From positions 1-59,366 of the forward strand of contig VCMS01000402.1 in the NCBI GenBank assembly GCA_022539475.1: a stretch of 59,366 nt of DNA, given 5' to 3'. Shown one piece after another: positions 19,085-39,158 of the stretch. A model generated the notes under the pieces. That model saw nothing but the letters and a program-made list of their open reading frames with translations, made no database searches and was not told the origin of the DNA. Source of the DNA: Gracilaria domingensis (Eukaryota > Rhodophyta > Florideophyceae > Gracilariales > Gracilariaceae). Position numbers and translations under genes: made by a program. Position 1 is the first letter of the stretch; each line of letters opens with the position of its first letter.

Positions 19085-19260
19085 CATCAACCCGCAACTT
19101 GTACTCCACCTCATTCACAAGTAAAGCACCTTCATCTCCTCCTTCCTCTACTTCCACCATCTCCGCGAATGATAGCGTAAGATTCTCATCATCATTCTCA
19201 ACGGTTTTTCCTCCTCATCCTCAACAACCATCCTCCCAGCTCACTCTCTCCCTCGTATCC
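19085..19260 (-). pseudogene. Fragment of an acidic protein running into the gap
   Basis: On the minus strand an open frame rich in Glu, Asp and Val runs from about 19,200 into the Ns (for example residues MVEVEEGGDEGA, encoded from 19,160). Upstream, near 19,205, the frame breaks at a run of five As; one more A would join it to another Glu/Asp-rich stretch. The left copy (9,001-9,090, plus strand) is recognisable but more broken. Function is unknown, and it may be the tail of a larger gene lost in the gap. Confidence 0.3.
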
Positions 19261-20610
19261 ACCACCACTGCTCCTTCTTCCAACCCGGCTCCGGAACCCG
19301 TCTGAACCCACCGATGTCTCCTTCTTACTCACTCCTTTCTCCTTCCTTGTTCCTGCACGCCACCCTTCGGCTGATTTACATCCCTCCTTCTACCCCCACC
19401 AATCCCTCGCGTTGCGATCCGGCCCTCTTCTCGCCATTTCCTCTCGCAGACCTCTCTTCCCTCACCCCATCTCCCTCACATCACCTTAACTTCGCCCCAA
19501 ACTATCCGTTCGCGCCGGTACCAAAAGTCTCTCGCATCCTCGTCCTCGCTTCCGATCCCAAACTCCTAACCTCGCAAACGCCGTTCAGATCTTCGTCTTC
19601 GCCCGGAGTTACCGGCGTTCCCTCCACACTTCCCCGCTACTCGCCCTTCTTCCTCCATTAATGCACCTCCTTTCGGCTCCCTCCAGGCTTCCTCAATGGC
19701 GTTTTATCATCTTCTTCTCGCTGCCTCTTTCATCCGCTCATTCCTTAGGCACCTAGTCACCCATTACTTCGTCAGTCGAGCCAACGTCCTCTCGCCATGC
19801 GCAGTTCCTCATGCAGCTCTTCGACCAGCACTGCAGTGGGCCCGATGTGTTTGATGTCCTCTCTCTCGACACACTCTTTAACATTCTGCTGCGACCGTCT
19901 ATAGAGATAGCCGACTCCCCACGATATTATGGACGGAGATCTTCATCGCTCATGGTCGCGTTGGTAGATAGATCTGGAAAAAGAGCAAAAGGGATATCGA
20001 AAGAGAAATCAGGGAAGCCGAAACAGACAGAACGTCGCTGAATCGCTCCTTTCGCGAACCGATTCACGGTGTACAAGGGTAGACGCTTTCGTCCCATGAC
20101 ACTGTTTAGTACCGCCGCACCCGCTCATATCCGTTTCCAACGCTCTCCGCATTCGCAAATGTATTTTTCATATTTACTAGCACAATTCTTTCACTTTTGA
20201 AACACTCTCTATGTCTTTCTCATTCTCCATGTTCTTTCCAACCGTTGCGAGAAGGGCGTCCCTTTCATACATGTTCATGCCAGTAGTATATGAAATGAAA
20301 TCCTACCACTACCATCATATCATGATTCTTCCGTCCTCTTCATCGCCCTACATTTTACTCTTCATGTACTCTCTCTTCATGGCTTTTCCATCACACGAAG
20401 CTAAGTTCGCCACTCGTTTTTATGAACACCTTCTTCACTTCAAATTTACAAGCCTCAACAGGAAACAAAACATTAGATATAGCTCCTTCGATACACCTTT
20501 TATAGGTAATATCTGCTCGTTTCGTTCTCAATAAATATATCTTCTCCTCGCCCCTTCTTTCTTCATTTCTTCTCCTCTTTCCTACCTACTCACAGGCAGC
20601 AGAGCTCACA
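19261..20610. other. Pyrimidine-rich region between the gap and the membrane protein gene
   Basis: The plus strand is strongly C/T-rich from 19,100 to about 19,800. Open frames here (for example 19,314-19,661) encode Ser/Pro/Leu-rich polypeptides typical of such composition and are not preserved in frame in the left copy, so I do not call them. The 200 bp before 20,611 are well conserved between the two copies although non-coding, which suggests a promoter region. Confidence 0.4.
20497..20504 (-). promoter_or_regulatory. Conserved TATA-like box
   Basis: TATAAAAG on the minus strand, conserved in the left copy at 8,074-8,081 within a block of conserved non-coding DNA. On this strand it would drive leftward transcription toward the acidic fragment. 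It also lies about 110 bp upstream of the rightward ATG at 20,611, so a two-way promoter is possible. Confidence 0.3.
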
Positions 20611-21445
20611 ATGGCCTTCCAAAACACCCACAAGGTATCGCATGTACAGCTTCGCAACCAAACTGCTCTCATACCTATCCATCTCAACGCATTTCCCCAT
20701 AGGACATACATCACCTTTGACGACTGCCTTCAACTGAAGTACGACGTTGACACCGGGGAAGCCACGGTTCGAGGAGTCCAGACCCTTTTATCCCCCGAAC
20801 TGCTGGATGAACTCAGTGATGTTTATGACATACTTCACGAAGTTTTCAATTCATGACCGAATCCTTGAACATCCTCCCTTCTTCCACAACAATTGGGAAT
20901 CTTTCAGAGCTACCCAACTACATGTCAGAGGCTCGGTCTTATTCACATAATCCCCTGAACATGCTCTCGCTATCCTCTCTCTTGGCATTCTCCCTCTTCG
21001 TTTCAGTAGCCATAGGAGCTCTCTATGGGATTATAAAGCCTCTCACAACACACGCTCTTCTCTACGATCGCTCCTCCCCGCCAAACACAACTGGATTCAC
21101 CATCCTGTACAGCATGCTCGAAACTATGTTTCACATTATTCTGTTTGAATTGGCATTCTCTCTTCACGCCACAAGGTATGGTAGACTCGCATATGGTCCA
21201 ATGACTCCGTCGCACACATCCAGCACCGTTTCGGCACTGAGGAATAAATACCTCGGCATGGGCATCGGTGGGCTTATCGTCCTCAACCTCTCTATCTTCG
21301 TCACCTATCAGCTCCGTCCTCCTCCAATCGATGTCATGGATTCTCTCAAACTGCATGTATTTCCTTCTTCCCCGGCGGTTTCTTCTTCGGCTTCTTCACC
21401 ATTCTCATGCAACACATTTGGGATCTATTTCTCTACAAAACATAG
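20611..21445 (+). CDS. Multi-spanning membrane protein, function unknown (frameshifted)
   Basis: The gene starts at ATG 20,611. The first 81 codons encode a soluble N-terminal domain and end in TGA at 20,854-20,856; the next frame opens with the overlapping ATGA at 20,853. The second frame holds three hydrophobic helices (around 20,960-21,020, 21,100-21,160 and 21,250-21,310). A final helix rich in Phe reads in another frame at about 21,375-21,440 and ends with TAG at 21,443-21,445; the left copy supports that last frame. So one protein of about 275 residues with four membrane segments is likely, broken by about two frame changes. I recognise no family. It converges on the dioxygenase gene. 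Which membrane it sits in is not shown. Confidence 0.45.
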
Positions 21446-22078
21446 TTCCGCCTCTCCAATCGGGTGGTATACCGGAGAAGAGGGCTAAATCCGTACTGCC
21501 GTTGTATTCTAAACTCGTTCCGGAAAAGCTTTGTTCCTTCAGGATTTCCTGCTTTCTATCAGACTTTTTCTGAACAGAGTGGTCCCAGTTTTCTTCGCAC
21601 ACACACTCTCCGAGTCTTTGGACCCGAATCCTTTGGTTCGTACAGAGGTATCCCGCCCCTCCTCACAAACACCTTGTTCAATGTACTACTTGTATGCTCC
21701 GGAGTCGTCAAACACGCACCAAGAATCAACGCAAAGCGATACTTGTGCGCCATTGGTGAGCACCCTAGACCCCCGACACAACATCTACTGCCTTCTGGCG
21801 GACGTATTCACCAAGTGCGAGACAAGTAGTATACGAACATAAGTACATAACTGATACATGTTTCAACTAAACAGAATTTCTTCTCTACAAACATAGTTCC
21901 CACTTGTCATGACGCTCTCCAGGATTGAAGTGTTTGGTATGGTATCCTATCCTACCCTTCAATCTTGGGTAGAGTCGTCGCTTCCACAATTCTTAAACTT
22001 TCTCTCGATTCACAACATCATTTACTTCGAAACTATATTCGACACATAGATTACTACAAAGTTTCATCACATATTCAC
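21446..22078. other. Intergenic region between convergent genes
   Basis: This holds the 3' flanks of the membrane protein gene (+) and the dioxygenase gene (-). Open frames at 21,464-21,842 are not conserved in the left copy and have no natural protein character. No regulatory element recognised. Confidence 0.4.
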
Positions 22079-25000
22079 TCAGTCCTCTTCGCCATCCTCA
22101 AGATCGTTTTCAATCTCCTCCACTTCATAATTCTCATCTTCGTCATCTTCTTCATACTGTTCTTCCCCTTCCTCTACTATCACCTCATCATTCTCCTCCT
22201 CCAAATTCGACGGTTCCGGATTCTTCCTCTTCTCCTTCATACTAACCAGGTCTTCATCCTCCTTGAACTGAGGTCGAAAGTGTGGGTTAAGGTGTACCGC
22301 ATCCGGGAGGTTTTATTTCTCAGGTACCATGTACATGTGGTAACGAAACAAGGGAATCTCGGGGAATCTTCCATCCTCATTTGAAGCGCCGGCATGGAAC
22401 ACATCACCTCTTCCAATAAATATAGACTTAGGCGGAACGAAAAAACTTCCTCACAAACATCCCCCGTGCCAAAACCTTCAAATACCTTGGGAGTAACTGC
22501 GTAGTCTGTATGAGACCCTTCACATACCCAAATTGGAAACGACACACTTCCGGACACCATCATAAAGTACCCCGGGTTCTTCTTCTCTTCCAGCTTATCC
22601 TCATTCGCCAAGGTCGGGAAATCCGTATGTAACTGCTGCCGCTTGCATCCAACTGCAGTGCATAACACCCTCCCCCCCGTCTTCGGCGCATACATCCTCT
22701 CGTTTTCCCACCCTATTATCTTGTAAACCCATTAAAGCACATATCTGTCCCAGTCGGGCATCCAGTAAAAGCTCTCTTCTTCACAAGCACATGTCTTTCT
22801 ACGGCTGCCTCCATGTCATCCACTATGCCTCTTCTCGTAGTCATGTACCTCCCACCATCTGCGTTGATGATCGGTATCCATGTGGTTCCGTTCTCTGGTA
22901 TCCTAAGGTCTGGAGCCCTCTCGAAGTTCCTTCGGAAGAAGTCCAGTAATTCCACACTAACATCCCCGTCAATGAGCTTGCTCAAACTCTCTGTCAGCTT
23001 CACCAACTCTCCATCTGATGCAAAGCCGTCCAGAATACAGAAACCTCTGTCTCGAAGCTCGACGTTCTTCTTCACAAAATAGACATACGCAAGAGAGTCG
23101 TTCTTCAGTGCATCCCCCATAACGTCTTCTCGTCGACCTCCATGCCTCCATTGCCGCGTTCAGGAGTTTATGGCCATGATACGCTGCATGCCAAAAGACT
23201 GCATGGTGCACACTTTCAAAGTCCTTGGGCTCCAACAAGTGGCCTCGGTGTTGCTTCTGGAGATGTATCGCATCCATCCACGGGTACACAGATTTAATGA
23301 CATTCTCCACTCCAGTCGCCACTTGCTTGGTAAGGTCTTCACCAACTTTAGCCACGAATCGTCACCTTCATATGCTACTTCTTCAGCTTTCTTCAGACCT
23401 GGCGCCAACACCTGCGGTACTGTGTCATCGAACGGGTCAGTGTCCTCTGCCTGTGAGACCACAATTGGTACTCCATCTGAGTCTGTGTCGCTGCCAATGG
23501 ATATCTGATGACTTTTCAACAAGTTTCTCACCCCCTTCGCACCAAGACTCCGCAGATGACTGATAACTTCATCCCTGAACAGATTGAATACCCTCCGTCC
23601 TTGACTTCTTCCGTTGATTAGGGTTCACGTCTCTCATTGCATTCCTTCGTCGACGGCTTCGTCTTGAACTCCTCATGCTTCTTGTCTTCGATGGCATCTT
23701 CTCTTCACTTTCTACATCAGAGTCCTTAGAGCCCTTGCGCACTGGCGCTTTGGCCTTCCTACTTGCCGAACGTGTGCCATTCTCTGCGTTGTAGACTCGT
23801 CTACCGCTTTGGTCTCAGACTGTGGTTCAGTCGGCGTAGTACCAGTGGCAGGTTTCAACATATCCACCCCTAAACTCTTTGCCAGCTTATCACGAGCAAT
23901 CCAGACTCTTCTCGAAATCCTTCCTTCCCAGAGCTTCTTATTCGAAGGTACTTCAATTCGTGCTGCCTGTGTTGCAAGGTACTCACGAACGGTGCGCATT
24001 TCAAACTTTGTCACTTCCACCTTCATGGCATACGCTTCTTCCAATGTAACTTTCTTCTTCTTCGAAAGCTCCTCTGCCAAAGATTGAAGCCTCCTGCAGC
24101 AGATAAAGAAGTATTTGCGTATGTCTTCAAAACGACCGGTCAGTTGCGACACTCGCCTCCTGGAAAAGTATGCAACCAGAGCGTCGAGCGTGAAGTGGGT
24201 TGTATGCTCATCCATGGTAAAGAATTCTTCACTTGATATACAAGAAATTCCAATCTCATGGTAGTCCTCACAAATCCGCTCCAAATGTTCCAGCAATCCA
24301 GAACTTCTCGCCACCTTCAACCCCATCTCTGCAAAATCTGGCCAAATGCCTTGATATTGTACTGGCCAATGATACCGAAAACACTTAGTGCACCTGCGAC
24401 AGAGGTCCTCGTCATCTTGCTCAAGTCCTTCTTCTCTTCCTCAACCAGGACCGTTATAAATGACACAATAGAATGCACCTTGTCAGCAAAACCCATAAGA
24501 CGAGCTTGCTTCAATCCATCGTTTAGCACATTGCCAAGGCTCAAGATTTCCCTCGTGGTCATCTTCTGTCCATCTTTTCTCTTCCACAGCGAAACAGAAA
24601 GACCTCCACATAGATTCCTAATGTTGGGCATAGATTCACAGAGCTCTTTGAGTGCTACATGACGATGAGCTTCATCAATCAGCACACAATTCACTTTCAA
24701 GCGATTGTTCTGCACTATGTCCTTCTCGGACACATCCTGAGACATAACAGCAACGCTCATGGTCCCAAGTGCCTGTAAGAAGCTTTGCGTCAATCTCTTC
24801 TTTCAGAGCCTCTACATGATTCCGGAACAACCCTCTCACAGTCATTTCCGGAACTTGAATGAGCTCAATATCGATTTCAACAGACACATACTCGTAATGA
24901 TCTAACTCAAATACCAAACTCGCATAACTCGTATCGACATCATCAGGAGGTATCACATCACCTTCATCAAAGAGTTCATTGACGTTGCTTCCAAGGCTTT

Positions 25001-25928
25001 CCTTCACTAGAACCACGTCTTCGTCTTCGTCTTTATCCACGTCAATCACTTCCATTGTCACTCCACTGCGATTTCCAGCCTGAATAATAGCTTCCGCAGT
25101 GCTGTTCCTCGATGCTCCAGACTGCACAATCGTAGCAGTTTGTTTACGAAATGCCGATACAGCACTCTCTGGGGTCGTGGTCATCTTGAATTCTTGCATC
25201 TGCTTTCCACCACCATGAACGTTCGATGATGTTTTCAGCTTTGGTACTGGCGCTTGTTTCCCGCCTTGGGGTTTTTTAGCATTCGACGGGGTTTTCACAT
25301 GAGCCACTTTCATCGGTATTCGCTTTCGGGCACTGGATGGAGTTTTAGGTTCTACCACTCGCACCCGTTTCCAAGCAGTATTCGATGGCTCCTCAGGGGC
25401 GACGAATTTGGAACTCGGAGCACCCTTGTCCCCTTCATCAGCGCTTACGACGTCACCCACCTTAGACATTAAGTTCAGGTCCCAGGCGTAGAAACCGGGC
25501 CTGTTCATGTCCTTCAAAGTCTTCGGAACAGAATCTTCATCGGTACACTTAAAGGGATAGGGATAGGGAGTGTCAAGCTCATGAGATATCTTCGCTCGCC
25601 ATATACCAACTACATCTTCCCCTGGTTTTCCCTGCAGAGCATGTCCATGCATTTCCCTTCTGAACGTTGTCTTCCCTCCACCAGCGACCGCTTCAACGAG
25701 AACAGCTTTCCCAATCGCTGCTTTGTTCCCTCCTGCCCCTCCCAACAACAAGGTCACTTCTTCGCCTGGTGCGGGCTTCGACTTCATAGCTGTGGATGCG
25801 TTCCCCGTGGCTGCGTTCGGTTCAGCAGTTTTGGTCCCGCTTCGAAGTTGTGGTGCCATGGTTCGTCGAGGCTTTCTCACCTTTCGAGAGCGTCTCATTT
25901 GACCCTTTCCCAGTCCCCTCATATCCAT
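22079..25928 (-). pseudogene. Long fusion protein with C-terminal 2-oxoglutarate/Fe(II) dioxygenase domain (multiple frameshifts)
   Basis: The gene starts at the ATG at 25,926-25,928, which is conserved in the left copy, and runs without a recognisable intergenic break to TGA at 22,079-22,081, about 1,280 codons. The reading moves between frames at about eight places. In order it has: a basic N-terminus; a glycine-rich P-loop-like AGGGKTT (near 25,660); a Lys/Ser/Pro-rich linker; an acidic VIDVDKDEDED stretch resembling a SUMO-interaction motif (near 25,030); a helical Lys/Glu-rich part (24,320-23,900); and the basic GRPKR (near 23,750). The C-terminal ~350 codons are a 2OG-Fe(II) dioxygenase, with HTD at 22,617-22,637, the second histidine in VFHAG at 22,388-22,402, and an Arg 14 residues later as the likely 2OG-binding residue. 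TAA at 22,313-22,315 replaces a left-copy TAC. As sequenced it is broken; the substrate is unknown. Confidence 0.65.
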
Positions 25929-26178
25929 TATATGGTGCCAGTGTGTGTGATATACACGAGTCCTGGTGTTCTTCAAATCGTACGTTTGCTCCCGTGAAGT
26001 TGCAACTGCTCGTGTTCGAATCTCCACCCTTTCTCGCGTGAGCACAATGGACGCAACCACTCACGTTCAAAACGGCTGAAATGCCCACGTGAGCAGTGTG
26101 GGTACAGTTCCTGATGGTTATAAATGGTTGGATCAATGTCCGATTCCGTCCTGGTTGACCACTGTCCCCGCCTTTCAT

Positions 26179-26313
26179 CATCTTTGAACATCGCCCGAGC
26201 GCCGTGTGGGAACCGCAGTTCGCCCAGTTCATAGCCGAGATCATAGCTATGATCTCGGCTATGAACTGGGCGAACCGCGGTTCCCACACGGCGCTCGGCG
26301 ATGTTCAAAGATG
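26179..26313. promoter_or_regulatory. Near-perfect 135-bp palindrome between divergent genes
   Basis: The arms 26,179-26,246 and 26,247-26,313 are reverse complements with no spacer. I count one mismatch (CCGCAG versus CCGCGG) and one unpaired base; the centre is GATCATAG/CTATGATC. It lies between the start codons of the leftward dioxygenase fusion gene (25,928) and the rightward methyltransferase gene (26,594). A palindrome this long and clean can form a cruciform and is normally unstable, so it is either recent or maintained. It could be a shared promoter/operator, a replication or resolution site, or two abutting transposon ends; the sequence alone cannot tell. Confidence 0.85.
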
Positions 26314-26593
26314 TACGAACCCAGTGTTTTCTACGTTGATTTTACATACTAGACATATAATGCACTGCACATACTGAGGTGCCCCACCGGTTTGATGTGT
26401 TTAGATCCCACTCTCGCCTCTCTATTTCATTACCCGCTCAGTTCTCGGTAATCCGTCGCAACCGCGCTCTCCACCATTGTTTCCGACGCTTCCCGACGTT
26501 TCCGACGCTTCCCACCCATTTAAACATCTCCGAAACTTCTACCGTTTCACAATACTCGTTTACTTCGCGTCCTTTCCGATTCTCAGTTCTTAC

Positions 26594-29135
26594 ATGGCGT
26601 CCACCGGAAATGACGCTCCTCGGACTGTTAAGCAGAGTGTGCTGGCCGATGAGAACCACGGCACGGTATCCTCTAGCGCATCCTCTAGCGCGTCGTTCGA
26701 TTCAGCCAGGATGGCAACGCGTTTCTTGAAATGTTGGGGGTGTTCATTGAGTTGCGAGATGCGTATGCCGCTTCAAGAAGTGGTACTGGTAATCCGCGTG
26801 AAGTTGGGTACACGGAAGTTGTAGAATACGCTGTATCAAACCGTGAACACCTGGCATGTGCACGAGAGTTCATCACCACTGCGGTCAAGGGTCCTTTCCA
26901 AAACTACTCCGCAAAAGAACTCACGAAGATCTGTCTGGACGTGCGTTTTCTGAGCAGGGTCTACAAATATACGCGTATCACTGATCTAGACGACGAGAAT
27001 TCTGATCGGCGCGTGAGAGATTTGTTTACCTGGAGTCTTGAAAAGGATTTCGACAACGGTAACTCGTTCATAGAACGGGCTTTCTGGAATGACTTTTTCA
27101 AACGACATGGTCCAGGCAGTAAGCAGACGAAGAGAACTACGTTCAGGATTGGGCCTCCCACTCGTTTTCAGCAGTTACTCTATCTCTCTTTCGTGAAGCA
27201 TATAACTTCGGAGAGAAATCTCCCAGCGGCGAAGAGAGGAAGGACCGGGAAGGGAACCCATAGAGCTGTGCAGTTCGTCGACGACTACATAGCTTCGAAT
27301 GAAACGCACGGGAGACGGATGGCACATGCAGTGCAAACAATTTGTAAGGGATGGGATTTCTTTGCCTCAACCTTAGGCTTTGGTGATGGTGAGCAGATGT
27401 TGCTGCCATACCTGCTTGTAGAAAAGAAGTCGCTTGGGTTCCATGTCATTGAATCCCGCTCTGTTGGGTACAGTCCGGAGTCAGCTTTTCATACGTTGGG
27501 GGAAGAACTGAAACCCACGTTGGATGTGAACGACACCGTTTCTTGGGTTCATACTCTTCCCGATACTATCGACGCCAACTTACGGGAGTTGGCAAAGGAA
27601 TTCTTGGCAGATTTCAGCAAGATTGTGTTGAATGGCTTCCTATACAAAATGTCCCCAACGTCAAGATGGAATTTGTTGGAAAGCTTCAGACCTGGCCGCC
27701 CCGCACGAGTACCACCCCGTTTCAATGTATTCTACGAAGAGTACGTGTCTCCTATTCATCAAGCGATGTCTGTACATAACTTCCAACCATCTCGACTTAT
27801 CCCAAGGGCCGCTCCTTCAGGGCAGGATGGAGGAAGTAATACCGTCACGGTTAAGGTTGAGGACTCGATACAGATTCCGAGCTCCTCCAAGAGGAACGCC
27901 GCAGGGAAAAGCTCAGTTAACTCCGATGTCATCGTCATCCTCGATAGCGACAATGAAGAAGGTGATACACCTGGTGCCTCTGTTGGGGCGAAAGATAACG
28001 TTCAAGATGGGGTTCTCCCCCCTCATGACTTTGATGACACGCGCACGTTAAATGCTCTAGATGTGGTGCGAGAAAGCATGGAGAAGCAATTCTCAATGCA
28101 TTGTGTCGGATATGACGAACTGGTGGAGGACCATGGTACTATCTTCCCATCGGATACATCTTTGGAAGGCAACGTTCAGTTCGTGCTCACAGACCCACCA
28201 TATGGCATCCGCGACAGCGAGTACGACGAATTGGCTGACGATGATATGGACAATACTGCGGACATCATGGCATCCATGCTTCGACCAGGAGGACATTCGT
28301 TTTGTTCTGCAGTATCGACCAGTTTGAAGACTGGGAAGAGATTTTGCGAGAGCACAAGTCGGAGGACGCAAGCGGAAAGAAAACCGCATCATTCTTAGTG
28401 GATTCGACGCCCATGAACTTCATTCGTTCTCGTTCGAACCCCTTGAAGAACCCTGCGCGTAATACTACTCGCCTGTTTGGGGCGACGGAGTACGCCGTGC
28501 ATGGCGTGAGGAATGGAAACCCGTACGCGGAACAGAAGGTAATGGTGAACTATCAGAACTTCAACTACGTTTCAGCTCGCTATCCTGGGCACTATTCTAT
28601 CATTGACCAGGTTCCAAATCTTACGCCTGGGGAGAGTCTCCGATGGAGAGTGAAGAGTGGTAGAAGAATTCGAACCGCGAAGGCTCGTCCAGAACAAAAG
28701 TCGAGGCAGCTACTGATGGAGCTGATAGCGAGGTTCTCGAATCCCGGGGATGTTGTGGTTGATCTCTACTCCGGGACGTTCTCGTGCGCGCTGGCATGTA
28801 TGGATATTGAGGGGCCTCGGCGTTTCATTGGATGTGAGCAAGATGAGCAGTGTTTCTCTCATGCCAAGCACAATGCTATTGTGCATTACGCAAGAAAGGT
28901 GTGGCGCAATGAATTGAAGATGAAAGAACCGGTTACGAATGAGGTAGTTCAAGCGTCTTATGTGGTGGATGCCAAATTTCCTGAACGGAAACGAAAGACT
29001 TCGACCATCTGGAATGCACCCAAGGGATTCCCATCGTACCAATCTTTCCCATTCCATATCATGTCGTACCTATCCACCTATTGGAATGAACCTGGTCTTA
29101 TCACTACGTACAAAGAGAAACCGTTCCATGAGTAG
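26594..29135 (+). CDS. Beta-class DNA N4-cytosine/N6-adenine methyltransferase with long N-terminal extension (two frameshifts)
   Basis: The likely start is ATG 26,594 (MASTGND). The frame breaks at 26,722-26,724, where three Ts stand and the left copy has four. It runs from 26,731 to about 28,300, then breaks again in a T-run at about 28,298-28,301 (five Ts would restore it) and continues to TAG 29,133-29,135: about 845 codons. The N-terminal ~440 residues are unassigned. At 27,928-27,951 is a hydrophobic-acidic VIVILDSD, a good SUMO-interaction motif, pointing to a nuclear protein. Catalytic motif IV is DPPY (28,192-28,203). The SAM-binding motif VVVDLYSGTFS follows at about 28,752-28,785 after a conserved R-P-E-Q-K-S segment. 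Motif order IV then I is that of bacterial beta-class N4/N6 enzymes, so the catalytic domain was probably acquired from a prokaryote or phage. It would methylate an exocyclic amino group of A or C. Confidence 0.8.
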
Positions 29136-29156
29136 CCACTTGCCTTACAAGGGAAG

Positions 29157-29759
29157 ATGACTACGTTGGACAGTCACAATTTACTCTCTGTCGAGGCGAG
29201 ATCGCTATGGCTCTGTGTGAAGAAGTCGAATATCAAACAGGCAGCAAGTGGAAATGGAGTATTTACGAGTAGGGCGTTTTCCGAAGGGGAGGTTATTGGA
29301 TACTTTTATGGGACCTTGGTGTATCCTGATCTAAGCCGACGCAATACCACACATTTGACGTATGGAGACGGAATGCTGGGGGCCACTGCATCTCGGTTCA
29401 GGAAGTATTGCATGCAAGTGAGGGTGAAGGGGCAAATGTACAAAACTCTCCCGCATTATGATACTGAAGTCAACGCTGGTCATGCCTGGATAGTTCCTGC
29501 TCCTTTCTGTGTAGCGGGCTATATCAATGACGCGTCATATCGTGAAGGTGATGAGGACAAGGAATTGGAAGAAATGGATTCTAACATGGCACGCAAACCA
29601 AATGTATTCATTCGCCAGCCCACAGAGTATCAGGCTACAACTTTGGGGCTTTTGGAGAACTACAGACTCCTCGTAGTCACGGCCTCAAGGAAAATTAAGG
29701 AGCATGACGAAATTTACGTTGACTATGGACCCACGTATCCTTGGGAAAGGTTAACCTAG
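29157..29759 (+). CDS. SET-domain protein, 200 residues
   Basis: The open frame runs from ATG 29,157 to TAG 29,757-29,759. It lies 21 bp after the methyltransferase stop and in the same frame, so removal of that one TAG would fuse the two. The SET signatures are in order: GNGVFTSRAFSEGEVIGYFYG (SET-N) at residues 32-52; GYIND with a later KPNV in place of the usual R-F-x-N-H-S-C...PN; and DEIYVDYG near the C-terminus (the usual E-x-x-x-D-Y). The histidine of the NH motif is replaced by Asp, so catalytic activity is uncertain. SET proteins methylate lysines of histones or other proteins. There are no pre-SET cysteines. The very short spacing suggests a fused or co-transcribed unit. Confidence 0.75.
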   Translation: MTTLDSHNLLSVEARSLWLCVKKSNIKQAASGNGVFTSRAFSEGEVIGYFYGTLVYPDLSRRNTTHLTYGDGMLGATASRFRKYCMQVRVKGQMYKTLPHYDTEVNAGHAWIVPAPFCVAGYINDASYREGDEDKELEEMDSNMARKPNVFIRQPTEYQATTLGLLENYRLLVVTASRKIKEHDEIYVDYGPTYPWERLT

Positions 29760-30223
29760 GTTCTCAGACAATGTCCTTGAACTTCGTATGGGCTCAATGT
29801 AGTGAGAAAAGCTTTTTGTTGGAGTAAATTGTATTGAACACTTGTGCTATGATTGCAGAAATACCACTCATATGTACACTCAAGCTGTACTGTGTAACAT
29901 ATTGATGCATATAGTGGTATGAAAGATCGTTGAAAGTGCCGTACTTGTATATGCAGGGCGCAACATCCGGGAAAATCGTACCAAGTCCGGAATATGGACC
30001 CGGGAAAGGTCCAAAAATTGAATGCCGATCCGCCACAAATGCTGCAGAATGCTTTTCTCCATATATGCAGTACGAGGTTAAATTCCCCTCCCCTTCACAT
30101 ATCAGTCCCGCACACCGAGTACGTAACCCTCACATATCACTCTCAATCATATACCTTCAGTATCGTTCACGTTTCTATATCTGTTCCGTAATACTACCGC
30201 GCACGAAAGCCGAAGGATCTCGG

Positions 30224-31075
30224 ATGGCCCCTCAACGTGCGGAGCATGCAGGTGGTAAACCGCGAAAGGCATCGGTACCGCCGGAGCGCTGGGATACTGG
30301 GGTGGCCAAACGTAGGAGCGCGGTCGTCTCACGAAGTAGTGCTACTAATGGGAGAGGTAGCCGAGGCCGAGCACCTCGTGCTGGACTTCGCAAACCAAAA
30401 TCTTCATCTACAGTATCGGAAGTAAAACCGAGAAGGAGGTCAGGAGCTTCCACATGCACTACGGAACGCACAGTAAGTGAAACCGTTCAAGCCAAGGATA
30501 GTGCAATGCCTGGGCCTGTTACACGCCACATGGCTGCAATAGAAGAGCCAAGGGTCAGTGATGATGGAAATGTAGATGTCAAAGCGATGAAAGGAAATAA
30601 GAGAAGAACGGCTGTACGTCAGAATGTAAGGAGGACAAGAGGCAGTGGAGGAACAGAAGGTCCTCGTATCGATGATTGTTTCGACAAGGTGAGAACTGCG
30701 GATGACAATGCGGAGATGGAAACCGTGGATTGCGCCATCGTGAGAGCCGAACCTAGAGCCGAACCTGGGGATAGGGAGATACCCAGAAGCGCTGCCGGAA
30801 CAGAACGTAACAGTTATGATTCGAGAAAAGTGAAGAGGAACGAGAAAATGAATGAGGGTGTCTCTCGTGCCAAGAAAGGCAGTGGAAGAAAGGAGCGGGA
30901 GTCCACGGACGCAGTAGATATCCCAAGTGACGTCGAGGACAAGGATAACGTGGAGGCGAACGATAACGTGGACGCCGGAAATGCAACGCATATGGCTCCC
31001 ATCGAAGGCAGGCATGATTCCGTCCCTCATATTGGGTCCAGACACAAGGATGACGAAGACGAAGACGAGATATAA
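30224..31075 (+). CDS. Basic, disordered, probably nuclear protein (or N-terminal half of a larger one)
   Basis: ATG 30,224 opens 283 codons ending in TAA at 31,073-31,075; upstream codons in this frame look non-coding. The product is rich in Arg, Lys, Ser, Gly and Asp, with clusters of basic residues typical of nuclear localisation and DNA or RNA contact (residues 10-90 and 190-240) and an acidic DEDEDE end. No folded domain is visible. The frame continues open straight after the stop into the coiled-coil gene that follows, so the two may be one protein of about 846 codons interrupted by a single TAA. Confidence 0.6.
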   Translation: MAPQRAEHAGGKPRKASVPPERWDTGVAKRRSAVVSRSSATNGRGSRGRAPRAGLRKPKSSSTVSEVKPRRRSGASTCTTERTVSETVQAKDSAMPGPVTRHMAAIEEPRVSDDGNVDVKAMKGNKRRTAVRQNVRRTRGSGGTEGPRIDDCFDKVRTADDNAEMETVDCAIVRAEPRAEPGDREIPRSAAGTERNSYDSRKVKRNEKMNEGVSRAKKGSGRKERESTDAVDIPSDVEDKDNVEANDNVDAGNATHMAPIEGRHDSVPHIGSRHKDDEDEDEI

Positions 31076-31267
31076 CCGACACCAGTCACAGGTGAGTCAC
31101 AGAGAAACAGGTTCAATCAGGTCAGAAGAAGGACGAACCATGGAAATGAGAATAGACGGGTGGGGAACGATCGGCAACCTGTCATAGCAAACGCCCGTAG
31201 AGAAGTATGGAACGATAAAGATGTTGATCGTGGTGCTTTGTCACGGAGCTTTTCCCTGCATGGTGCA

Positions 31268-32761
31268 ATGGAAGAAGATGAAGATGAATCCCTTTCTCCG
31301 CGATACGAGCTTTTGGAAAAGATCGGGAAACTGAAGGGAGATCTGTATCATACAATAGAGAACAAGCAAAGTCTGAAAATGAGCGTACGACTTGCTCAGA
31401 AGAACATAGAGCAACTGGAGTTTAAGGTCAGAGAACAAGAGGTTCTCATACACTCTTTGAGAGAGGCTCTCAGACGTGTAGGGAAAAGGAACGAACGTGA
31501 CAGTAACAAGAGCAGGAAGCGGTACAACATTGACGTGAACGACGAGTTTGTTGGTGTTGCGAAGACCGTCTATGACTCCATACTTCAATACGCCAAAGAC
31601 GAGACAAGAGAGCTATGCTTCGAGATGAGTATACCGGCAAGGAACTGGGGCAACCGAAGTGAGACAGTTGGACCTGAGAAAGACGACAGTGTGCTGGTTG
31701 TTGATGGGAAGGAGATAGTGCCACGGTGCCCAATGGATCTTGCCATGGAGATGAGGGCGTACACGCCATCCGTACGTGGTGGAGGCGACCATTTGTTGAT
31801 GCAAATTGTGGAGACGGAGGTAATGAAGCCACGTTGGGAATCTATCCGAGGAATGAAAATGGAAGATGACCGTGTGAAACAGTTAACGCACGACATTTGT
31901 TTGCGCAGAAGGTTGAAACAGGCTTTAAGTGATGCAATAGGTGTTCGAAAACGCCATGCGAAGGAGAAGTTATTGATGGGACTAGGTTACGACATGCTTG
32001 TAAGGACCCCGATAAAAAATGATGAAAGGGAGCAGAACAAGTATGAAGTACAAACCAGAGAGGTACGTGAAAAACTCCTACCCAAAGATGCAAATGGATG
32101 TGAGATTCTGTCGTCGTGGAGAACTCAGAAGGTAGAAGATATATGTTTCTCGGGCTTTAACCCATATCATGCAACCGAAGATGAACCCTGTGACTTGCTT
32201 TTTCGGAACAGCCTGAGCTTGGAGGTGCTGCGTGAGTTCATGGGCTACGACGTTTTACAAACAAGTTCGAGGAATACCGAAGAGAGGGATCCAGTGAATG
32301 GAACAATTATGCATCTGGCACGTCTTGATGCCTGGATAGCGTCCGTTGTTCGCGCGACAGAGTCTGAACGAGGGAGAGGTGGTAAGAGACAAGTGTTGTT
32401 CTTCAACTTGTTCGGGAAATATCTACCACTGGCACTTGAGAGTATACTGAAGACCGTGAGGGTCCGCATGCAGCAGAGTTATCCAACAGAGTTCAGAAAT
32501 GGCCCATCGAATGCTGAAGATGCGCGGCATGGAAATGATGACCGGGTGGGCACTGTGGTTTACTGGATTCCGTCGAAAAGGAAAATGTACCTTGCTGTCC
32601 GAGAAGATGTGTTTATGGGAGAGATCTCTGAGAAGCTCGGAGCTGTACTGGATTGCTATGTTGGATGCTGCAGTCGGGGAGACCGTATGTTCTACGACAT
32701 AACTGCAGAGAGGGATGTTAGGGAAAGGTTTGTGCAAGAAGGATTACATGAGGAGAATTGA
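31268..32761 (+). CDS. Coiled-coil protein of unknown function, 497 residues
   Basis: The first in-frame ATG after the TAA at 31,073 is 31,268, but the frame is open and protein-like from 31,076 onward. It ends at TGA 32,759-32,761. Residues 10-75 form a heptad-like, Leu/Lys/Glu-rich coiled coil. The remainder (about 400 residues) has the composition of a folded mixed domain with conserved-looking Trp, Cys and Gly, but I cannot name it. It is in the same direction and frame as the preceding basic ORF, and the stop lies 31 bp from that of the convergent transposase. A role as accessory protein of the mobile element is a guess from position only. Confidence 0.6.
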   Translation: MEEDEDESLSPRYELLEKIGKLKGDLYHTIENKQSLKMSVRLAQKNIEQLEFKVREQEVLIHSLREALRRVGKRNERDSNKSRKRYNIDVNDEFVGVAKTVYDSILQYAKDETRELCFEMSIPARNWGNRSETVGPEKDDSVLVVDGKEIVPRCPMDLAMEMRAYTPSVRGGGDHLLMQIVETEVMKPRWESIRGMKMEDDRVKQLTHDICLRRRLKQALSDAIGVRKRHAKEKLLMGLGYDMLVRTPIKNDEREQNKYEVQTREVREKLLPKDANGCEILSSWRTQKVEDICFSGFNPYHATEDEPCDLLFRNSLSLEVLREFMGYDVLQTSSRNTEERDPVNGTIMHLARLDAWIASVVRATESERGRGGKRQVLFFNLFGKYLPLALESILKTVRVRMQQSYPTEFRNGPSNAEDARHGNDDRVGTVVYWIPSKRKMYLAVREDVFMGEISEKLGAVLDCYVGCCSRGDRMFYDITAERDVRERFVQEGLHEEN

Positions 32762-32792
32762 ATAGAACGTCACTAATGCATTATGGTTCACG

Positions 32793-35700
32793 TTACGAAA
32801 GTTTGGTGATTGGATGGTAGTGTAAACGAGCTCTGGGATTGCGATAGAATCTGTTAATGTAGAATCGGTGGAACTTCCAGTGCAATGGAGGGAAAAAGGG
32901 GCGTGCGGGATAGTTTCGTCGGAGGATGTGTACCCAGCCTTTGATCGAAGAGAATGGGACGAGACCGAACCATGGGGATACAGATGCAGTTGTTGACCGT
33001 TTTAGAGAATTGGAGGTTTGCAATGTGTGATCTTCCTCGTCATCCGTGGCCCAGCGGAGGGAAATGCAGTTCAAGGATTCGTCAATGTTATCCAACGGCT
33101 CCGTTACCTCGAAGAAGCGAACAAAGGCAAATTTTGAATCGGAATTGCTTTGGTTACATCTGCTAAAGCGAACCAGGGCAAAGACTTTGCATACCCATGC
33201 GGTCGGGAAGTCACAACCGGGAGGAGGAGTTCCATTAACCAGGACGGTAGAGAATTTTGGGGACTTGGAAGGGCCGAAAGAAGTGGTTGCAAAAATACGT
33301 TCACACAAAGAGACCTCCGGCTCTCGCAGTCTAATGCATTGAAAGTGACGATCGTAGTCATCCAGCGAGGGGCAGAATCCAGAAACAATGTAAGCGAAGT
33401 TAACGACGGTGATTTTGATGTCATGGGGGTTGTCCAACGGTTGAAGAGTTTCTAATCTTAGGGTACGGAAGGAAGAGAGGGCGTCGCGAGAGATTTGGTT
33501 GATGAACTGCAATGTAGTTTTGGAGAACAAATCTGTGAGAGCAGATGACGGGACGTTTGGATGGGACCGTAGATACTTGTCGGCCGTGATGATGTCGAAG
33601 AGGGAGAATGAACTAGCATCACGAACCATGGAGGGACACCGCTGCGACAAACGACTGGCCGAGTTGGTAGACATGGAGAAGTGTTTCCTTACCGAGATGG
33701 AGTGTAAGAAATCCTGCGACTCTTGGATTGAGTCCACTCTTTTCTTATGCGCAGTTGATCTTCTGCGAGAGGTACGGCGGTAGTGGTTCTTGAAGAGGAG
33801 ATGCGCGTGCTCGTACACACCTGCATCACCGAAATGGAGGCCTCCGTATCGACGGATGTCTGGAATGATGTGATCCAGGAGATGGAATTTGAGAGTACGA
33901 AAGTTGGAGGCCTGGTATGGACCCAAAACTGAGACAGTTTGAGTCTTGAAGTTCTTGATGAGAGTCTCCAAAGAGCGTAAGCGATCATCAGTCCATTCTG
34001 GGGCAGTGTGGTAGTGAAGAACGTTATTGACGAGATCGACGTAAGAAGTGAAAATGGTGGTTATTGGGGCGGGAGATACTTCACCGCAGCAACGGTCGAA
34101 GAATGCACCGATGAAGGGGAAGACCATGTCGAGGGCGCGATAGTCCTTTGCTTCTAGCATGCCTCTGATTCCGTCAGTGGTGAAGAAGCCGTTGAGAGAC
34201 TTACCCTCTTCAAATGTCGAGAAATCAATATGAAGCCCTGGAGCCGGAAACGAGCCTTCGATGTCAGCTAGGATGGAGTTGGCGTGAGTAAGAATAGATG
34301 TTCTGATGGACCGAAACGACCTGGAGGATCCATTGAAGCCCACGGAAGTGTGAAGAGAATCGGACTTCAGGCGTTCGATTGTGGCGAGTTTGATGAGTTT
34401 AGAGATGCCAAGGTGAAAGTTGTGAAGGGGCTCGAAGGAGAAGATTGAATAAGGAGTGAGCAGTGAAGAGATGTTGAGAAGAGGGTAAGATTCCAGAAAG
34501 GACTTGTATGGAGAGAGAGAGAGGTGGAGTGGAGAAGTTCTACAGCTTCTTCTTTGAGGTTCCTTGCAACCCGTGGTCTATGGGAGAGGAGAGCAGAATC
34601 TGCCTCGAGAAGTAGGTCATCATGTCTTTTTCTGGTTTGCAAAGTGTGTGAGAGGGTTCGCTCTGTGAGAGTAGGTTGGTAGAGGTTGAGTTTTGAACGA
34701 GGTAGGAGACACCGGTGGCAGGCTTTGCTTGGCTTTGTGCCATGAAGTACTGCGAGAATGTCCTTGGCTTCGGGGATGTCAGCGCTGTAGTTGGAGATGA
34801 CTGGATGGCATTGGCGAAGGACTCCTTTGGCGTCGCGGAAGGGAAAACCCTTCATACCGATATGATACAGAGGTTTGAGGATGGTTTCTAGGGACTCCTG
34901 GACGAGCTGCATGCGCACAATGCGGGTCACGCTGGGGGTTGAGGGAGCGACTTCCAAGGAATCTGTGTCAGTGGAGGACGAGTCGGAGGTGAAGGATGTG
35001 GGTATGTATCCGACGAGTGTGTAGTTCTGCGTGATGCACTTTCTGCGGAAGGAGTCATTGAAATTGAGGAGGGTGATGTGAAGAGGATACGACGTAACAG
35101 AAGAACTTTTCAAAGAGGTGGAAGACTTGTCTGAATATAGTTGAACGAGGCCGACGAACGAGTCTGTGCCGGTGATACTGGGATCCTGCCAGATGACGTC
35201 GGGGTCCGGAGAATGCATGGTATGCCTCTTGATAGTCGGGACGACATGGCGGCCGAGTTCCGAAGCCATAGGGTGTGCGATTGCGGTAGTTCCTGTTCTT
35301 GAAGCTTGTTTGACTGGATGAAAGAAGGAGTTGCTGTGGGATGCGAGGCGAAGTTGTTGTAGGAGAACCTGAACGGGGTCCCTGAGGTAGAGGGTGGCGG
35401 AGAAGTTATGGTTTTTGTCATGGATGATGGTTGAGGTGAACCCAATGGAGCTGACTGTTTCTTCGAAGATTTTGGAGTGCAGTTTCAGACATTCGGCAGC
35501 GGAAGTGATGGAGGTCTGGAAGAGGGAAGAGGAAAAGGTGGATTGCTTGAGAATGTTGATGAGCTCGTCAGCAGAACGCTTTCCGAGTTTTGTGGCGATG
35601 GAGGATATGTAGGTGACGAGGTTATGGATGTGGTCTTTCTGTGAGGGTGGAGAGGGGGAGAAGGCGTTACCTGAGCCTGTGGAAGGGGACTGGGAGGCGA

Positions 35701-36013
35701 GTTGGTGATGCGGGCTGAGTATCTGTGCTGCGTCGGATGAGCGTAGGGAGAGAGCAAGCTGTTCCTGTAGATAAGGGTCGTCGTCTGCGAGTGCTATGTT
35801 ATCGGACGGTCGGTTAGAGGGAGGGAAGGAAGGGGGTTCGGTGTTGTTGAGTCTGCGGCGCTTGGTTCGGGGAGGGAAGTGGGATCCTCGATGAGGTGTT
35901 GGGGTGAGAAACGGGTTTGGGTCATTCCTGTGTCTGCATCGCTTCTGATGCTGGGCGAGAGAGGCGAGGGACTGTGTATGGAATGAGCAGCGGGGGAAAC
36001 AACAGTTGTGCAT
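32793..36013 (-). pseudogene. KDZ/Plavaka-like DDE transposase (one frameshift)
   Basis: The N-terminal half runs from ATG 36,011-36,013 in one frame to about 34,530; the C-terminal half continues in another frame to 32,793. Residues 1-40 hold a C2H2-like zinc finger (CCFPRCSF...HQKRC). Before the break are the acidic residue and Cys pair expected in this family (ADIPEAKDIL...CHRCLLP). After it come EPLHNFHLGISK, then FHLLDHIIPDIRRYGG...EHAH, the usual C-terminal D/E region, and near the end a hydrophobic V-P-F-S-S-I-K-G-W segment. Together these match KDZ/Plavaka transposases, which cut and paste DNA and are known in fungi and other eukaryotes, sometimes near TET/JBP-type dioxygenases. The frame change falls in a (GA)n run at 34,510-34,524. 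As sequenced it is inactive; total length (~1,070 codons) is normal for the family. Confidence 0.65.
34510..34524. repeat. (GA)n microsatellite in the transposase gene
   Basis: A run of GA dinucleotides on the plus strand. The reading frame of the transposase changes across it, so a gain or loss of repeat units is the simplest cause of the break. Confidence 0.7.
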
Positions 36014-36380
36014 GGCTGGGTGAGAGGGTATGAAAGTAGTGAGGGAAGTTGCTTGCAGAGGGAGGTCGGTGGTGATGGTGCGGCGCAGAATCTTGGAGCA
36101 CCCTGCAGGGGAGAGTATAAAGTGTGTTTATACGCCACCAACTCCACCGTGCACGTGATCGTTTACGTACCTTTCCTGCATGTTTCAGTGTGGGGAGGAT
36201 TTCGAACTTTTCTGAACACAACTTTCAAAAATTTTCGCGGACGGGGCATTACGCGGCCGGCGATGATTGACGTACAGTGTGGCTGCGATTGAAGTTCTTC
36301 TTCTGTGAGCTTCAGTGGCGTTGCCTCTCAGAGTCCTGTCCTGGGATGTGAAACGTGCAAAACAGGTAAGTCGAGGCGTA
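36014..36380. other. Upstream flank of the transposase gene
   Basis: This is non-coding as far as I can see. If the transposase lies at one end of an element, its terminal repeat would be near here, but I found no convincing inverted match to another part of the window. Confidence 0.3.
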
Positions 36381-36381
36381 A

Positions 36382-37770
36382 ATGTTTGATATGGCGAATA
36401 TGCGCGACTCTGACCAGTGTTTTTGCGCGGCGGCGGCTGTGTGCGAGAATGAGCGCGACAGGTTCATGAAGCTGCAGCGTGCGGAATCTTTGGATTGGAA
36501 CCGGAGTAGTTCAGGTTTTTTATGTTTGGGATGCGTACTGAATGGGTTCAATGTAAGTGAGACCTTTGGATGCTGATGGTGTTTGCGAAGTCTCACTGCG
36601 GAACGTTACGTGATTTTGCGAGACGAACGGAGAGGATTAGGAAGCAGGTTAGCGTGAATGTCTTGGGCGGGGGCCTATGGGTAAGTTTGAGAAGCTTTTT
36701 GTTCGACTTTTGATGTGAATGCTAACTGAATAATGTTGTATGCGTATGCGTAGGGCTTTTGGGACAGTTTGATGCGTGTTGTCGAGGGTATTGGTGAGGT
36801 AGGGGACACATGGTAAGTAGATGAGTGTTTATTTGAGAATGTTTCGAAGAGCGAAGAGATAGCTTACGGGATATGTGACTGCGCGGCGGGGGCTGTTTGC
36901 GAGAATGAGCGCGATAGGTTCATGGAGTTATAGCGTGCGGGATCTTTGGATTGGAAGTGGAATGGGGATGGGGCGGAAGGCGGTGATTTACTTCGTTTCC
37001 TATGTGTAACGTGTTTTTTGAGGTGAAGTGGATAAGGGAGAATGGTTACGATGTGGCTGGGTGGTTGGGTTTCTAGAGGAATCATGCTAATGACCCTGAA
37101 CTCTGACGAACAAGAGTTTGGGGTCACGGAAAGAATGATTACCTCAACGGAGGCCTTCCAGGTAATCATTCTTTGCCATTACTTCAAATTCTTGTTCGTC
37201 AGAGTTCGGTGTGGATGGCAAGGTACGCGTCGGGGTAAGTACGAGATGCTTTTTGTTCGAGTTCTGATAAGAATGCTAACTGGTTACTGTTTTATGTGTA
37301 TGTGCAGGATTTTCGGGACCGTTTGATTCGTGTTTTCGAGGCTATTGGTGAGGTAGGGACACATGGTAAGTAGATAAGTGTGCATTTGGGAAAGTTTCGA
37401 AGATGGAAAAGTATCTAACGGAGTATTTGACTAGCTTGTGTTTGTGCATGTGCAGGTGCGTTGGATGGCAATGGATCGGTGGCGGTGATGGAAATTGTGC
37501 AGTTGAGATGTTTTCGAGGGAGTTGGGGAGATGAAGATGGCGAAGAATGTTGAGGTAAGTGTGTTTATTTCCATGTTGGGATGGACGAAGAGACTAGGCA
37601 ACAGAAAACTAACCAAGGGGATGTCTACATTGAGGGCAACGAGAGCATTTTCAGGGTATCTATTCGGTGAGTTTCGATGCGTAATTGTCTTCCAAATGAT
37701 ACAGGGCTTCTTTGGTGATGTCAGAATGGACTTTCAGGGGTGCGAAGTAGGGTGGAGATGTGTACGATGA
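36382..37770 (+). pseudogene. Tandemly repeated exon/intron units, probably of a host gene
   Basis: Two related units lie in tandem, roughly 36,380-36,840 and 36,880-37,400. Each has a block encoding a C-E-N-E-R-D-R-F-M motif (36,440-36,480 and 36,895-36,925; the second has a stop). Each also has a 73-bp intron (36,681-36,753 and 37,235-37,307) with GTAAGT donor, a GCTAAC branch site and a TAG/CAG acceptor. The next exons (36,754-36,812 and 37,308-37,365) both read as a short peptide ending E-x-I-G-E-V-G. Further good introns are 37,366-37,455 and 37,555-37,654. The protein is not recognised, and exon phases do not give one clean reading frame, so I call it a decayed or incompletely understood gene. 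Confidence 0.45.
37098..37208. repeat. Foldback insertion (inverted repeat, ~47-bp arms, ~14-bp loop)
   Basis: 37,098-37,144 pairs with 37,159-37,208. Shared blocks are GAACTCTGACGAACAAGA and AAAGAATGATTACCT. It interrupts the second exon/intron repeat unit and has no counterpart in the first, so it is probably a small foldback or MITE-type insertion. Confidence 0.7.
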
Positions 37771-38134
37771 CCGGTTTGGACCTGTTTTCATGTGGTGCTA
37801 TACCTTGCATGAACCTGCAATACTGCATCAATAACATTCATTTCCGCTAGGATGGAACTTCCACCGTGCTTTCGGACCGATGGCTCTTTTGGACCGATGG
37901 ACCGGTAGTACTAGTGAACTAGCAGAAATGGAAGTTAGTTCTAAGATTCTAGCAACTTTCATATTTCTTAGAAATAGCTCGTAGTTTGAAAGTCAAGCCT
38001 AGTATTCCATTCAAACCATACTGCAGGATCTGGAGTTTACTCTAGTTTTTCTTCCACTTCAAACTTCCACTAATCGAAATTTAACATATGAAATACTAGC
38101 ATTTTTTTTCTGCGATTTTTGGACTGTAAACTAG
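37771..38134. other. No feature recognised
   Basis: An A/T-rich stretch with no open frame or repeat that I can support. It separates the intron-containing repeats from the DIRS relic. Confidence 0.4.
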
Positions 38135-39158
38135 CATCCCGGAAACACAGACGCATTTATTCTGTCCAAAGAATCCTCCTTACTGCTCCATATCATTGAC
38201 GATATCGAAGTTGTTGTATCCAAATGGCCACCGCGATCCCTCCTCCTCCTCTACAAGATATTTCGGAACACCTTCGCAGCAGCAAAGATACCAATCAAAT
38301 CCAGCAAGTCCTCTTCATTTCAAAGAGTTGTACAAAAGCAGGTCCCGTTCATTGGATGCATATGGGACTTGGAAAGTGCTTTTGTTTCCCCCATGCCCTC
38401 GAAGATGATCAAACTATACTCTTCTTTGGACGAGCTACTTCAATCTAGTACTATCGCTCTGCAAAAGTTGCAGTCAATTTTGGGAAGACTTATATGGCCA
38501 TCATTGTTCAATCGTCCTATCTGCTCTCTTGTCTCAACGTAGTCTTTCGGCACTCATCAAATACGTATCTGGAGGCAGTCCGTGTTTCGCAGCAAGACAA
38601 GAAAGAGATCTCTATGCTCACTTCTCTCCTTCCATAAGCCTTGGTGAACACCAGTGCCCCGGTATGTAACGTTGCGATCAGTTTCGATGCATCCATGCAA
38701 GCAGAAGCAGTCGTTTACACCTTCTTACCACCGACCTTGCTAAACGACTTTGGACTCTCTCGCAAATTCTTGGACACTCCAACCGCAACCATGAACTACG
38801 AGCTGAGAGCCCAGAAATGAAAGAGGTTCATGAAATTTATGCTTCTCTTTCTTCGAGCACTGCGGTCGTGCACAAATGGTGCGAAGTCGAACATATCAAC
38901 TGCCTCGAAGCTGCAACTGCATTACTTGCATTGAACTGGTTAGTGCATCATGGGTACCATAACACCAGATGCATATTCTTCACAGATTCTTCTGTAACTC
39001 AGGGTGCCTTATCAAAAGGAAGGTGTTCCTCAGTTCCCCTTCTTCTTCGCTGTCGTCGTTTCGCTGCACTATGTCTCGCTGTGGGCATCACAGTATCGTG
39101 TCTCCACCTATCCTCTAATCTACACGTTGCCGACAAGCCGTCCCGTCCGGATGTATAA
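38135..39158 (+). pseudogene. Relic of a DIRS-type retrotransposon: RT C-terminal part and RNase H
   Basis: A frame without an ATG runs from 38,135 to TAG 38,540-38,542. It contains HIIDDIEVVV, which matches the catalytic D-D block of reverse transcriptase, followed by VPFIGCIWDLESAF and the L-Q-K-L-Q-S-I-L-G-R-L segment typical of the RT-RNase H linker in DIRS/Ngaro elements. After a frame change, 38,663-38,816 carries ISFDAS, the first RNase H aspartate. Then 38,817-39,158 has NCLEAATALLAL (the usual N-x-x-E-L block), FFTDSSVTQGALSKGRCSS and a final NLHVADKPSR. These are diagnostic of DIRS-like RNase H. No tyrosine recombinase or long terminal structures remain nearby. It is a dead fragment. 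Confidence 0.7.

What the first reader, a model, noticed from the sequence alone, without database searches (positions are those of the whole stretch)
20611..36013. Candidate mobile element carrying a DNA methyltransferase, a 2OG dioxygenase, a SET protein and a KDZ/Plavaka-like transposase
Seen: beta-class methyltransferase motifs (DPPY, then VVVDLYSGTFS), a 2OG-Fe(II) oxygenase HxD...H...R set, SET signatures and transposase signatures lie within 15 kb with short gaps (21 bp and 31 bp between some genes). A large part of the block is duplicated in inverted orientation nearby. Known: KDZ transposons in fungi can travel with TET/JBP dioxygenases, and bacterial-type N4/N6 methyltransferases have been captured by some eukaryotes. 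Inference: the block is one element that writes, and perhaps erases or reads, its own DNA and chromatin marks. I know of no described element with this combination.
Basis: partly seen in the sequence, partly recalled or inferred. Interest (0 to 1): 0.85.

Follow-up and report, generated by a model that had tools for sequence, protein, structure and literature searches.

The report
Transposon carrying its own chromatin writers
A roughly 20-kb jumping gene, present in dozens of near-identical copies in one genome, carries a transposase together with enzymes predicted to put methyl marks on DNA and on proteins such as histones, so it may write its own chromatin state.

The parts
19085..38153 (.). 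Visible body of the main element copy; the left terminus lies inside the N gap 18352-19084 (about 18688 by comparison with copy C12)
   Evidence: Alignment to copies C12, C20, C22, C25, C42; ends
38139..38153 (-). Right terminal inverted repeat CGTCTGTGTTTCCGG (outer end at 38153)
   Evidence: Sharp end shared by window, C12, C22 and C42 (C42 with one base different), flanks unrelated; the 13-mer occurs 77 times in the genome against 6 for the reversed control
22050..25928 (-). ParB-like + 2OG-type oxygenase gene (broken here; frames of 1326-1327 aa without stops in C434, C61, C140); ends approximate
   Evidence: Frames in C42/C25; own-genome search
23820..24880 (-). Region of the ParB/sulfiredoxin-like domain (approximate, mapped by hand)
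   Evidence: Foldseek of model mab8100306aef: ParB 7bnk and 6sdk prob 1.00, Noc 0.97-0.99, sulfiredoxin 0.98-0.99; best E 1.7e-3, TM-scores low
22621..22629 (-). HxD of the proposed 2OG-Fe(II) site (QQLHTDF)
   Evidence: H, D and distal H invariant in 5 of 5 aligned sequences of A2; distal R in 4 of 4 sequences of A4
26195..26298 (.). 104-bp palindrome in the shared divergent promoter
   Evidence: no palindrome with arms of 18 or more in 20 order-1 resamples
26594..29756 (+). DNA methyltransferase-SET fusion gene, disrupted in this copy (frame changes and a stop); one 1055-aa ORF in copy C12
28175..28870 (+). Beta-class amino-methyltransferase domain (DPPY, then SAM motif); approximate
29250..29731 (+). 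SET domain
   Evidence: PF00856 30 bits in window, 28 bits in C12; SET proteins among viral fold matches
30224..32758 (+). Coiled-coil-like ORF of unknown function (a stop interrupts it in this copy), 34-38% identical in family 2
32796..36127 (-). Plavaka transposase, split over two frames here; 1110-aa single frame in C12
   Evidence: PF18759 82 bits, 85 bits in C12
1..9495 (-). Second, older, inverted copy (about 82-85% identical in pieces), cut by the contig start; its left-type terminus is at 9495

Best explanation
It is an autonomous terminal-inverted-repeat DNA transposon, moved by its own Plavaka (CACTA-related) transposase, that carries chromatin-modifying genes. SHOWN by sequence: one multicopy unit of about 20 kb with TIRs and 2-bp TSDs; four genes in fixed order; a DNA amino-methyltransferase fused to a SET domain; a partner protein with a ParB-like N-terminal part (by predicted fold) and an HxD...H...R motif region; large palindromes in the promoter shared by these two genes. 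INFERRED: the methyltransferase puts N6-methyladenine (less likely N4-methylcytosine) on element DNA, the SET domain puts a lysine methyl mark on histones at the same place, the ParB-like protein binds and spreads from the palindromic promoter to keep these enzymes on the element, and its oxygenase half removes host methyl marks. Together these would keep the transposase gene expressed against host silencing. I put about 0.95 on the composite element and about 0.4 on this mode of action.
Against: No activity, expression or methylation data. Seven of 15 end pairs lack a 2-bp TSD. In comparisons with the close copies and the older window copy dN/dS runs from 0.37 to 2.75, mostly near neutral, so recent copies mostly drift. 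The 2OG half is recognised by no profile and its model is unusable (pLDDT below 50). Of 34 relatives 21 carry no Pfam SET annotation, and the SET domain here has IND where the usual motif (recalled) is NHSC, so its activity is uncertain. Termini match neither published Plavaka type. The window copy is not intact.
Confidence: 0.6

Rival explanations
1. The methyltransferase-SET protein acts as a self-limiting repressor or silences competing elements: it deposits repressive marks to hold copy number down.
For: In bdelloid rotifers a captured N4C methyltransferase of the same Pfam family silences transposons, with SETDB1 as proposed partner (PMC8885841, abstract and passages); the SET mark here is unknown.
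Against: Family 1 and family 2 both show many near-identical copies, which fits activity better than strong self-silencing.
Confidence: 0.2
2. The methyltransferase times transposition: methylated or hemimethylated termini are read by the transposase so that movement follows replication, as Dam methylation does for IS10 (recalled). The SET half only tethers it to chromatin.
For: The modelled fold is closest to CcrM, a cell-cycle methyltransferase (recalled).
Against: Does not explain the SET and ParB-like parts; no target motif is known.
Confidence: 0.15
3. Methyltransferase, SET and oxygenase genes are host or other genes that merely lie next to a Plavaka transposon.
For: Plavaka and methyltransferase matches are each abundant in this genome, and in the capped lists most methyltransferase matches had no scored partner within 12 kb.
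Against: Shared sharp ends around the whole unit, TIR/TSD, fixed order and spacing in two families.
Confidence: 0.03
4. Viral or bacterial contamination or an integrated virus.
For: Methyltransferase domain relatives occur in bacteria and phages, some with ParB.
Against: Copies lie on many contigs of the same genome, some long, and the window holds a retroelement.
Confidence: 0.02

Closest known systems
TET/JBP-carrying DNA transposons of fungi, including TET+ Plavaka (Kojima 2025, PMC12730594; abstract, sections 18, 23, 26, 34 and passages seen)
   Same: A fungal DDE transposon, sometimes Plavaka, with a captured dioxygenase thought to counter silencing; 2-bp TSD
   Different: Here a DNA amino-methyltransferase fused to SET is added, and the oxygenase-like protein has HxD and a ParB-like part, not the HxE of the PE type that occurs with Plavaka. 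Termini are 5'-CGTYTGT, not TGT..ACA or CATCA..TGATG
HarbingerS/MuDR transposons of Phytophthora that carry SET histone methyltransferases (cited in PMC12730594, passage)
   Same: A DNA transposon with a SET gene
   Different: Different transposase; the passage mentions no DNA methyltransferase
Bdelloid N4CMT (PMC8885841, abstract and passages)
   Different: A host gene with a chromodomain that acts against transposons; here it is encoded by transposons and fused directly to SET. That paper says the bdelloid enzyme has no eukaryotic homologs
ParB-N6_N4_Mtase fusion proteins
   Same: ParB domain (PF02195) with the same methyltransferase family (P0038, P0040; a phage entry named ParB/Sulfiredoxin)
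   Different: Single shorter proteins without SET; here ParB-like and methyltransferase parts are in two divergent genes
DIRS-type retrotransposons with a DAM-like domain (recalled, no call)
   Same: Mobile element with a methyltransferase domain (recalled)
   Different: Retroelement, tyrosine recombinase, no SET fusion (recalled)

Membership tests
Plavaka (CMCT clade) DNA transposon | Plavaka transposase domain | tested here: met
   PF18759 82 bits in window, 85 in C12, cut-off 26.3; up to 87.5 in the genome
Plavaka (CMCT clade) DNA transposon | 2- or 3-bp TSD | tested here: met
   2 bp in 8 of 15 end pairs: 7 of 12 in family 1, 1 of 3 in family 2
Plavaka (CMCT clade) DNA transposon | Published termini TGT..ACA (type A) or CATCA..TGATG (type B) | tested here: not met
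   Termini are CGTCTGT.. or CGTTTGT..; so a Plavaka-transposase element outside types A and B
KDZ transposons | KDZ-type transposase | tested here: not met
   The only transposase family reported for this protein is Plavaka; no KDZ family matched
Beta-class DNA amino-methyltransferase | DPPY motif before the SAM motif, PF01555, fold | tested here: met
Beta-class DNA amino-methyltransferase | Methylates adenine N6 rather than cytosine N4 | not testable with these tools
SET lysine methyltransferase | SET domain over the curated cut-off | tested here: met
   28-30 bits, cut-off 22.4; SET proteins in the viral fold library
SET lysine methyltransferase | Histone substrate and activity | not testable with these tools
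   One Asn invariant in 29 of 29 (N958); the usual NHSC motif (recalled) is not kept
2OG-Fe(II) oxygenase / TET-JBP | HxD...H...R residues | tested here: met
   H, D and H invariant in 5 of 5, R in 4 of 4
2OG-Fe(II) oxygenase / TET-JBP | Profile or fold match | tested here: inconclusive
   No convincing Pfam, PDB-sequence or PHROG match; model of this part has pLDDT below 50
ParB/sulfiredoxin fold | Fold match | tested here: met
   Top six Foldseek hits are ParB, Noc (prob 0.97-1.00) and sulfiredoxin (0.98-0.99), then prob drops to 0.06; but best E is 1.7e-3 and TM-scores by target are 0.34-0.58

The most novel reading that the evidence does not exclude
A transposon lineage that carries a complete, self-contained epigenetic maintenance system: a ParB-like protein loads at palindromic sites in the bidirectional promoter and spreads along the element; a single enzyme writes a DNA mark (6mA) and a histone mark together; an oxygenase edits the host's marks. 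Its chromatin identity would be inherited independently of the host's system.
Probability: 0.22. Interest if true: 0.95.

Novelty: new variant of a known kind. Interest (0 to 1): 0.82.

Why it matters
Transposons that carry one epigenetic enzyme are known (TET/JBP, SET). One that fuses a bacterial-type DNA methyltransferase to a SET domain, keeps the fusion across deeply diverged families, and pairs it with a ParB-like/oxygenase-like protein would be a natural case of DNA and histone writing by one polypeptide. It makes a concrete test possible: are intact copies marked with 6mA, and does that mark keep them active? The passages I saw of a 2026 review of fungal DNA methylation name MTA1c and MetB (PF02384) as the fungal 6mA writers (PMC13297926); a PF01555-type writer inside transposons is not among them.

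Tried and rejected
KDZ assignment: rejected, the transposase is Plavaka. Separate methyltransferase and SET genes: rejected, one ORF in C12. Independent neighbours: rejected. Viral origin: 6 viral loci, methyltransferase part only. 2OG family by Pfam, PHROGs, PDB sequence and structure: no result; the two lowest E-values in the profile search were a fibronectin(III)-like module (0.00045) and a glycoside hydrolase family 9 chain (0.0021), which I judged unrelated. SET fold in PDB: not among the 50 rows shown, which the methyltransferase filled. Within-family dN/dS as a sign of selection: near neutral, so not used as support. Palindromes are not exclusive to the promoter: C22 has one in the right part of its family-1 copy and two that appear to lie outside the elements, C42 has one outside, and the older window copy has none. 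Host species: not identified; no CpG or TCG depletion in five parts of the window (which then stopped with an error, so flanks and family 2 were not measured). A check whether the host carries ordinary TET/JBP genes was not possible.

Full report
WHAT IS THERE. The window lies on contig C402 of an unnamed 77.9-Mb genome in 680 contigs. A eukaryotic, probably fungal, host is inferred from the abundance of Plavaka transposases and a retroelement at 45-48 kb with integrase, RNase H and reverse transcriptase domains; the species was not identified. Pfam finds N6_N4_Mtase, SET and Plavaka transposase domains in the reported block.

ONE ELEMENT. The stretch 26731-29756 has 39 other places at 95-99% DNA identity, several of them partial, plus one 85% piece (40 of 195 candidates scored). 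The stretch 20400-26700 has 22 others at 97-99% (23 of 222 scored). I fetched five copies with flanks: four stretches of 40 kb and one of 23 kb cut by its contig end. C12, C20 and C42 align to the window from its assembly gap (18352-19084) rightwards; C25 from 19334 to 36140 (its stretch holds 10,579 N); C22 only from 26241; C12, C22 and C42 reach 38153. At 38153 the window, C12 and C22 share CGTCTGTGTTTCCGGGATGC (C42 with one base different) and then all differ at once. The other end in C12, C20 and C42 is CGTCTGTGTTTCC[GC]GAACGC. In C12 the unit is 19,977 bp. The 13-mer CGTCTGTGTTTCC occurs 77 times in the genome against 6 for its reversed control.

TARGET DUPLICATION. Comparing two bases on each side, 7 of 12 family-1 end pairs match (C25 TT, C96 TA, C120 CG, C202 AT, C266 TA, C277 AA, C42 TA) and 5 do not (C140, C233, C293, C469, C12). 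In family 2, C20 matches (CT) and C395 and C239 do not. Eight of 15 at a chance of 1/16 gives P about 1e-6. I paired most ends by position, so some pairs may join two copies; that would explain misses but was not tested. C42 is longer than the others because of extra sequence inside.

A CONSERVED UNIT, NOT A CHANCE CLUSTER. PF01555 gives 150 matches in the genome (cap; 328 candidates), 126 of them longer than 550 bases. Of these 126, 36 have a Plavaka match within 12 kb; 32 have one on the opposite strand downstream, 29 of those at 5.4-6.5 kb. Likewise 26 have a ParB-2OG match within 12 kb; 25 have it on the opposite strand upstream, 21 of those at 5.5-7.0 kb. The remaining 90 and 100 had no scored partner in range; both partner lists were capped (123 of 672 and 99 of 688 candidates scored), so the counts are lower bounds. 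A family-2 element on C20 (about 34726-57565) carries all four genes in the same order. Identities are 42% (methyltransferase part), 42% (most of SET), 28-34% (the rest of that protein), 49-53% (Plavaka), 34-38% (coiled-coil-like ORF) and 27-36% (ParB-2OG). This C20 copy has broken frames too; family-2 locus L004 has a 955-aa frame across both domains. The left end is sharp at base 4565-4578 of the query in 29 of 29 other copies listed, and the right end at base 1715-1730 in 38 of 39 other main hits (C262 is the exception). Its termini on C20, CGTCTGTCTCTTGCAGATGCTAGTTTTT and CGTTTGTGTTCTGCAAAG, resemble those of family 1.

BEYOND THIS GENOME. A search of 5.8 billion proteins with the methyltransferase-SET half gave 34 relatives, 13 of them annotated with both Pfam domains; nearly all are unnamed. 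The ParB-2OG search gave 3 (only the 7992 best candidates were scored). The methyltransferase domain alone found 4 proteins, two of them ParB-methyltransferase fusions (P0038, P0040). The viral and prokaryote scans found only the methyltransferase part.

SELECTION. Against the diverged copy L002, one methyltransferase-SET stretch gives dN/dS 0.10 over 304 codons, but dS is about 3, near saturation; three further comparisons are fully saturated, and two family-2 copies give 0.49 over 597 codons. Against close copies and the older window copy dN/dS scatters from 0.37 to 2.75. So the proteins were kept over long times, while recent copies mostly drift.

PROMOTER PALINDROMES. The region between the divergent genes holds a 104-bp palindrome in the window, two palindromes in C12, and an array of unrelated palindromes in family 2. 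None with arms of 18 or more arose in 20 resamples of each of two elements. Other palindromes occur in C22 and C42 outside this place, and the old window copy has none. A ParB-like gene beside palindromic sites suggests, but does not show, a parS-like site.

MECHANISM. Best reading: a Plavaka-driven transposon that writes DNA and histone methyl marks on itself and edits host marks to stay expressed. Anatomy is shown; function is inferred. Rivals are self-limitation and replication-timed transposition.

LITERATURE. Seven searches. I read parts of PMC12730594 (abstract, sections 18, 23, 26, 34, passages), and saw passages of PMC8885841 and PMC13297926. They describe transposon-borne TET/JBP and SET genes and a host-borne PF01555 methyltransferase in rotifers. 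None of the text I saw describes a transposon with a DNA methyltransferase-SET fusion.

Noticed in passing
window 26195-26298; L049:3112-3924: Large palindromes in the divergent promoter; in family 2 an array built on GTCGTGTTAGGGTA and its complement
   Followed up: partly
window 36424-37411: Direct repeats of 56-126 bp (83-88% alike) in the right subterminal part of the element; C22 has a palindrome with arms of 44 in its right part
   Followed up: no
window 20506-21485 (+); copy C42 435-aa frame: Hydrophobic-looking ORF near the left end, uninterrupted in C42, with no Pfam match and no tblastn match in family 2
   Followed up: partly
window 45068-48113 (-): Retroelement (Ty3-like by domain order, recalled) with integrase, RNase H and reverse transcriptase domains
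   Followed up: partly
G000 contig C382 and others: Further methyltransferase subfamilies (for example three partial matches on C382 in frames of 1169-1170 aa) whose elements were not examined
   Followed up: no
P0024, P0032, P0033: Proteins in which, by eye, a ParB-like DGxHR segment precedes the methyltransferase in the same protein
   Followed up: no
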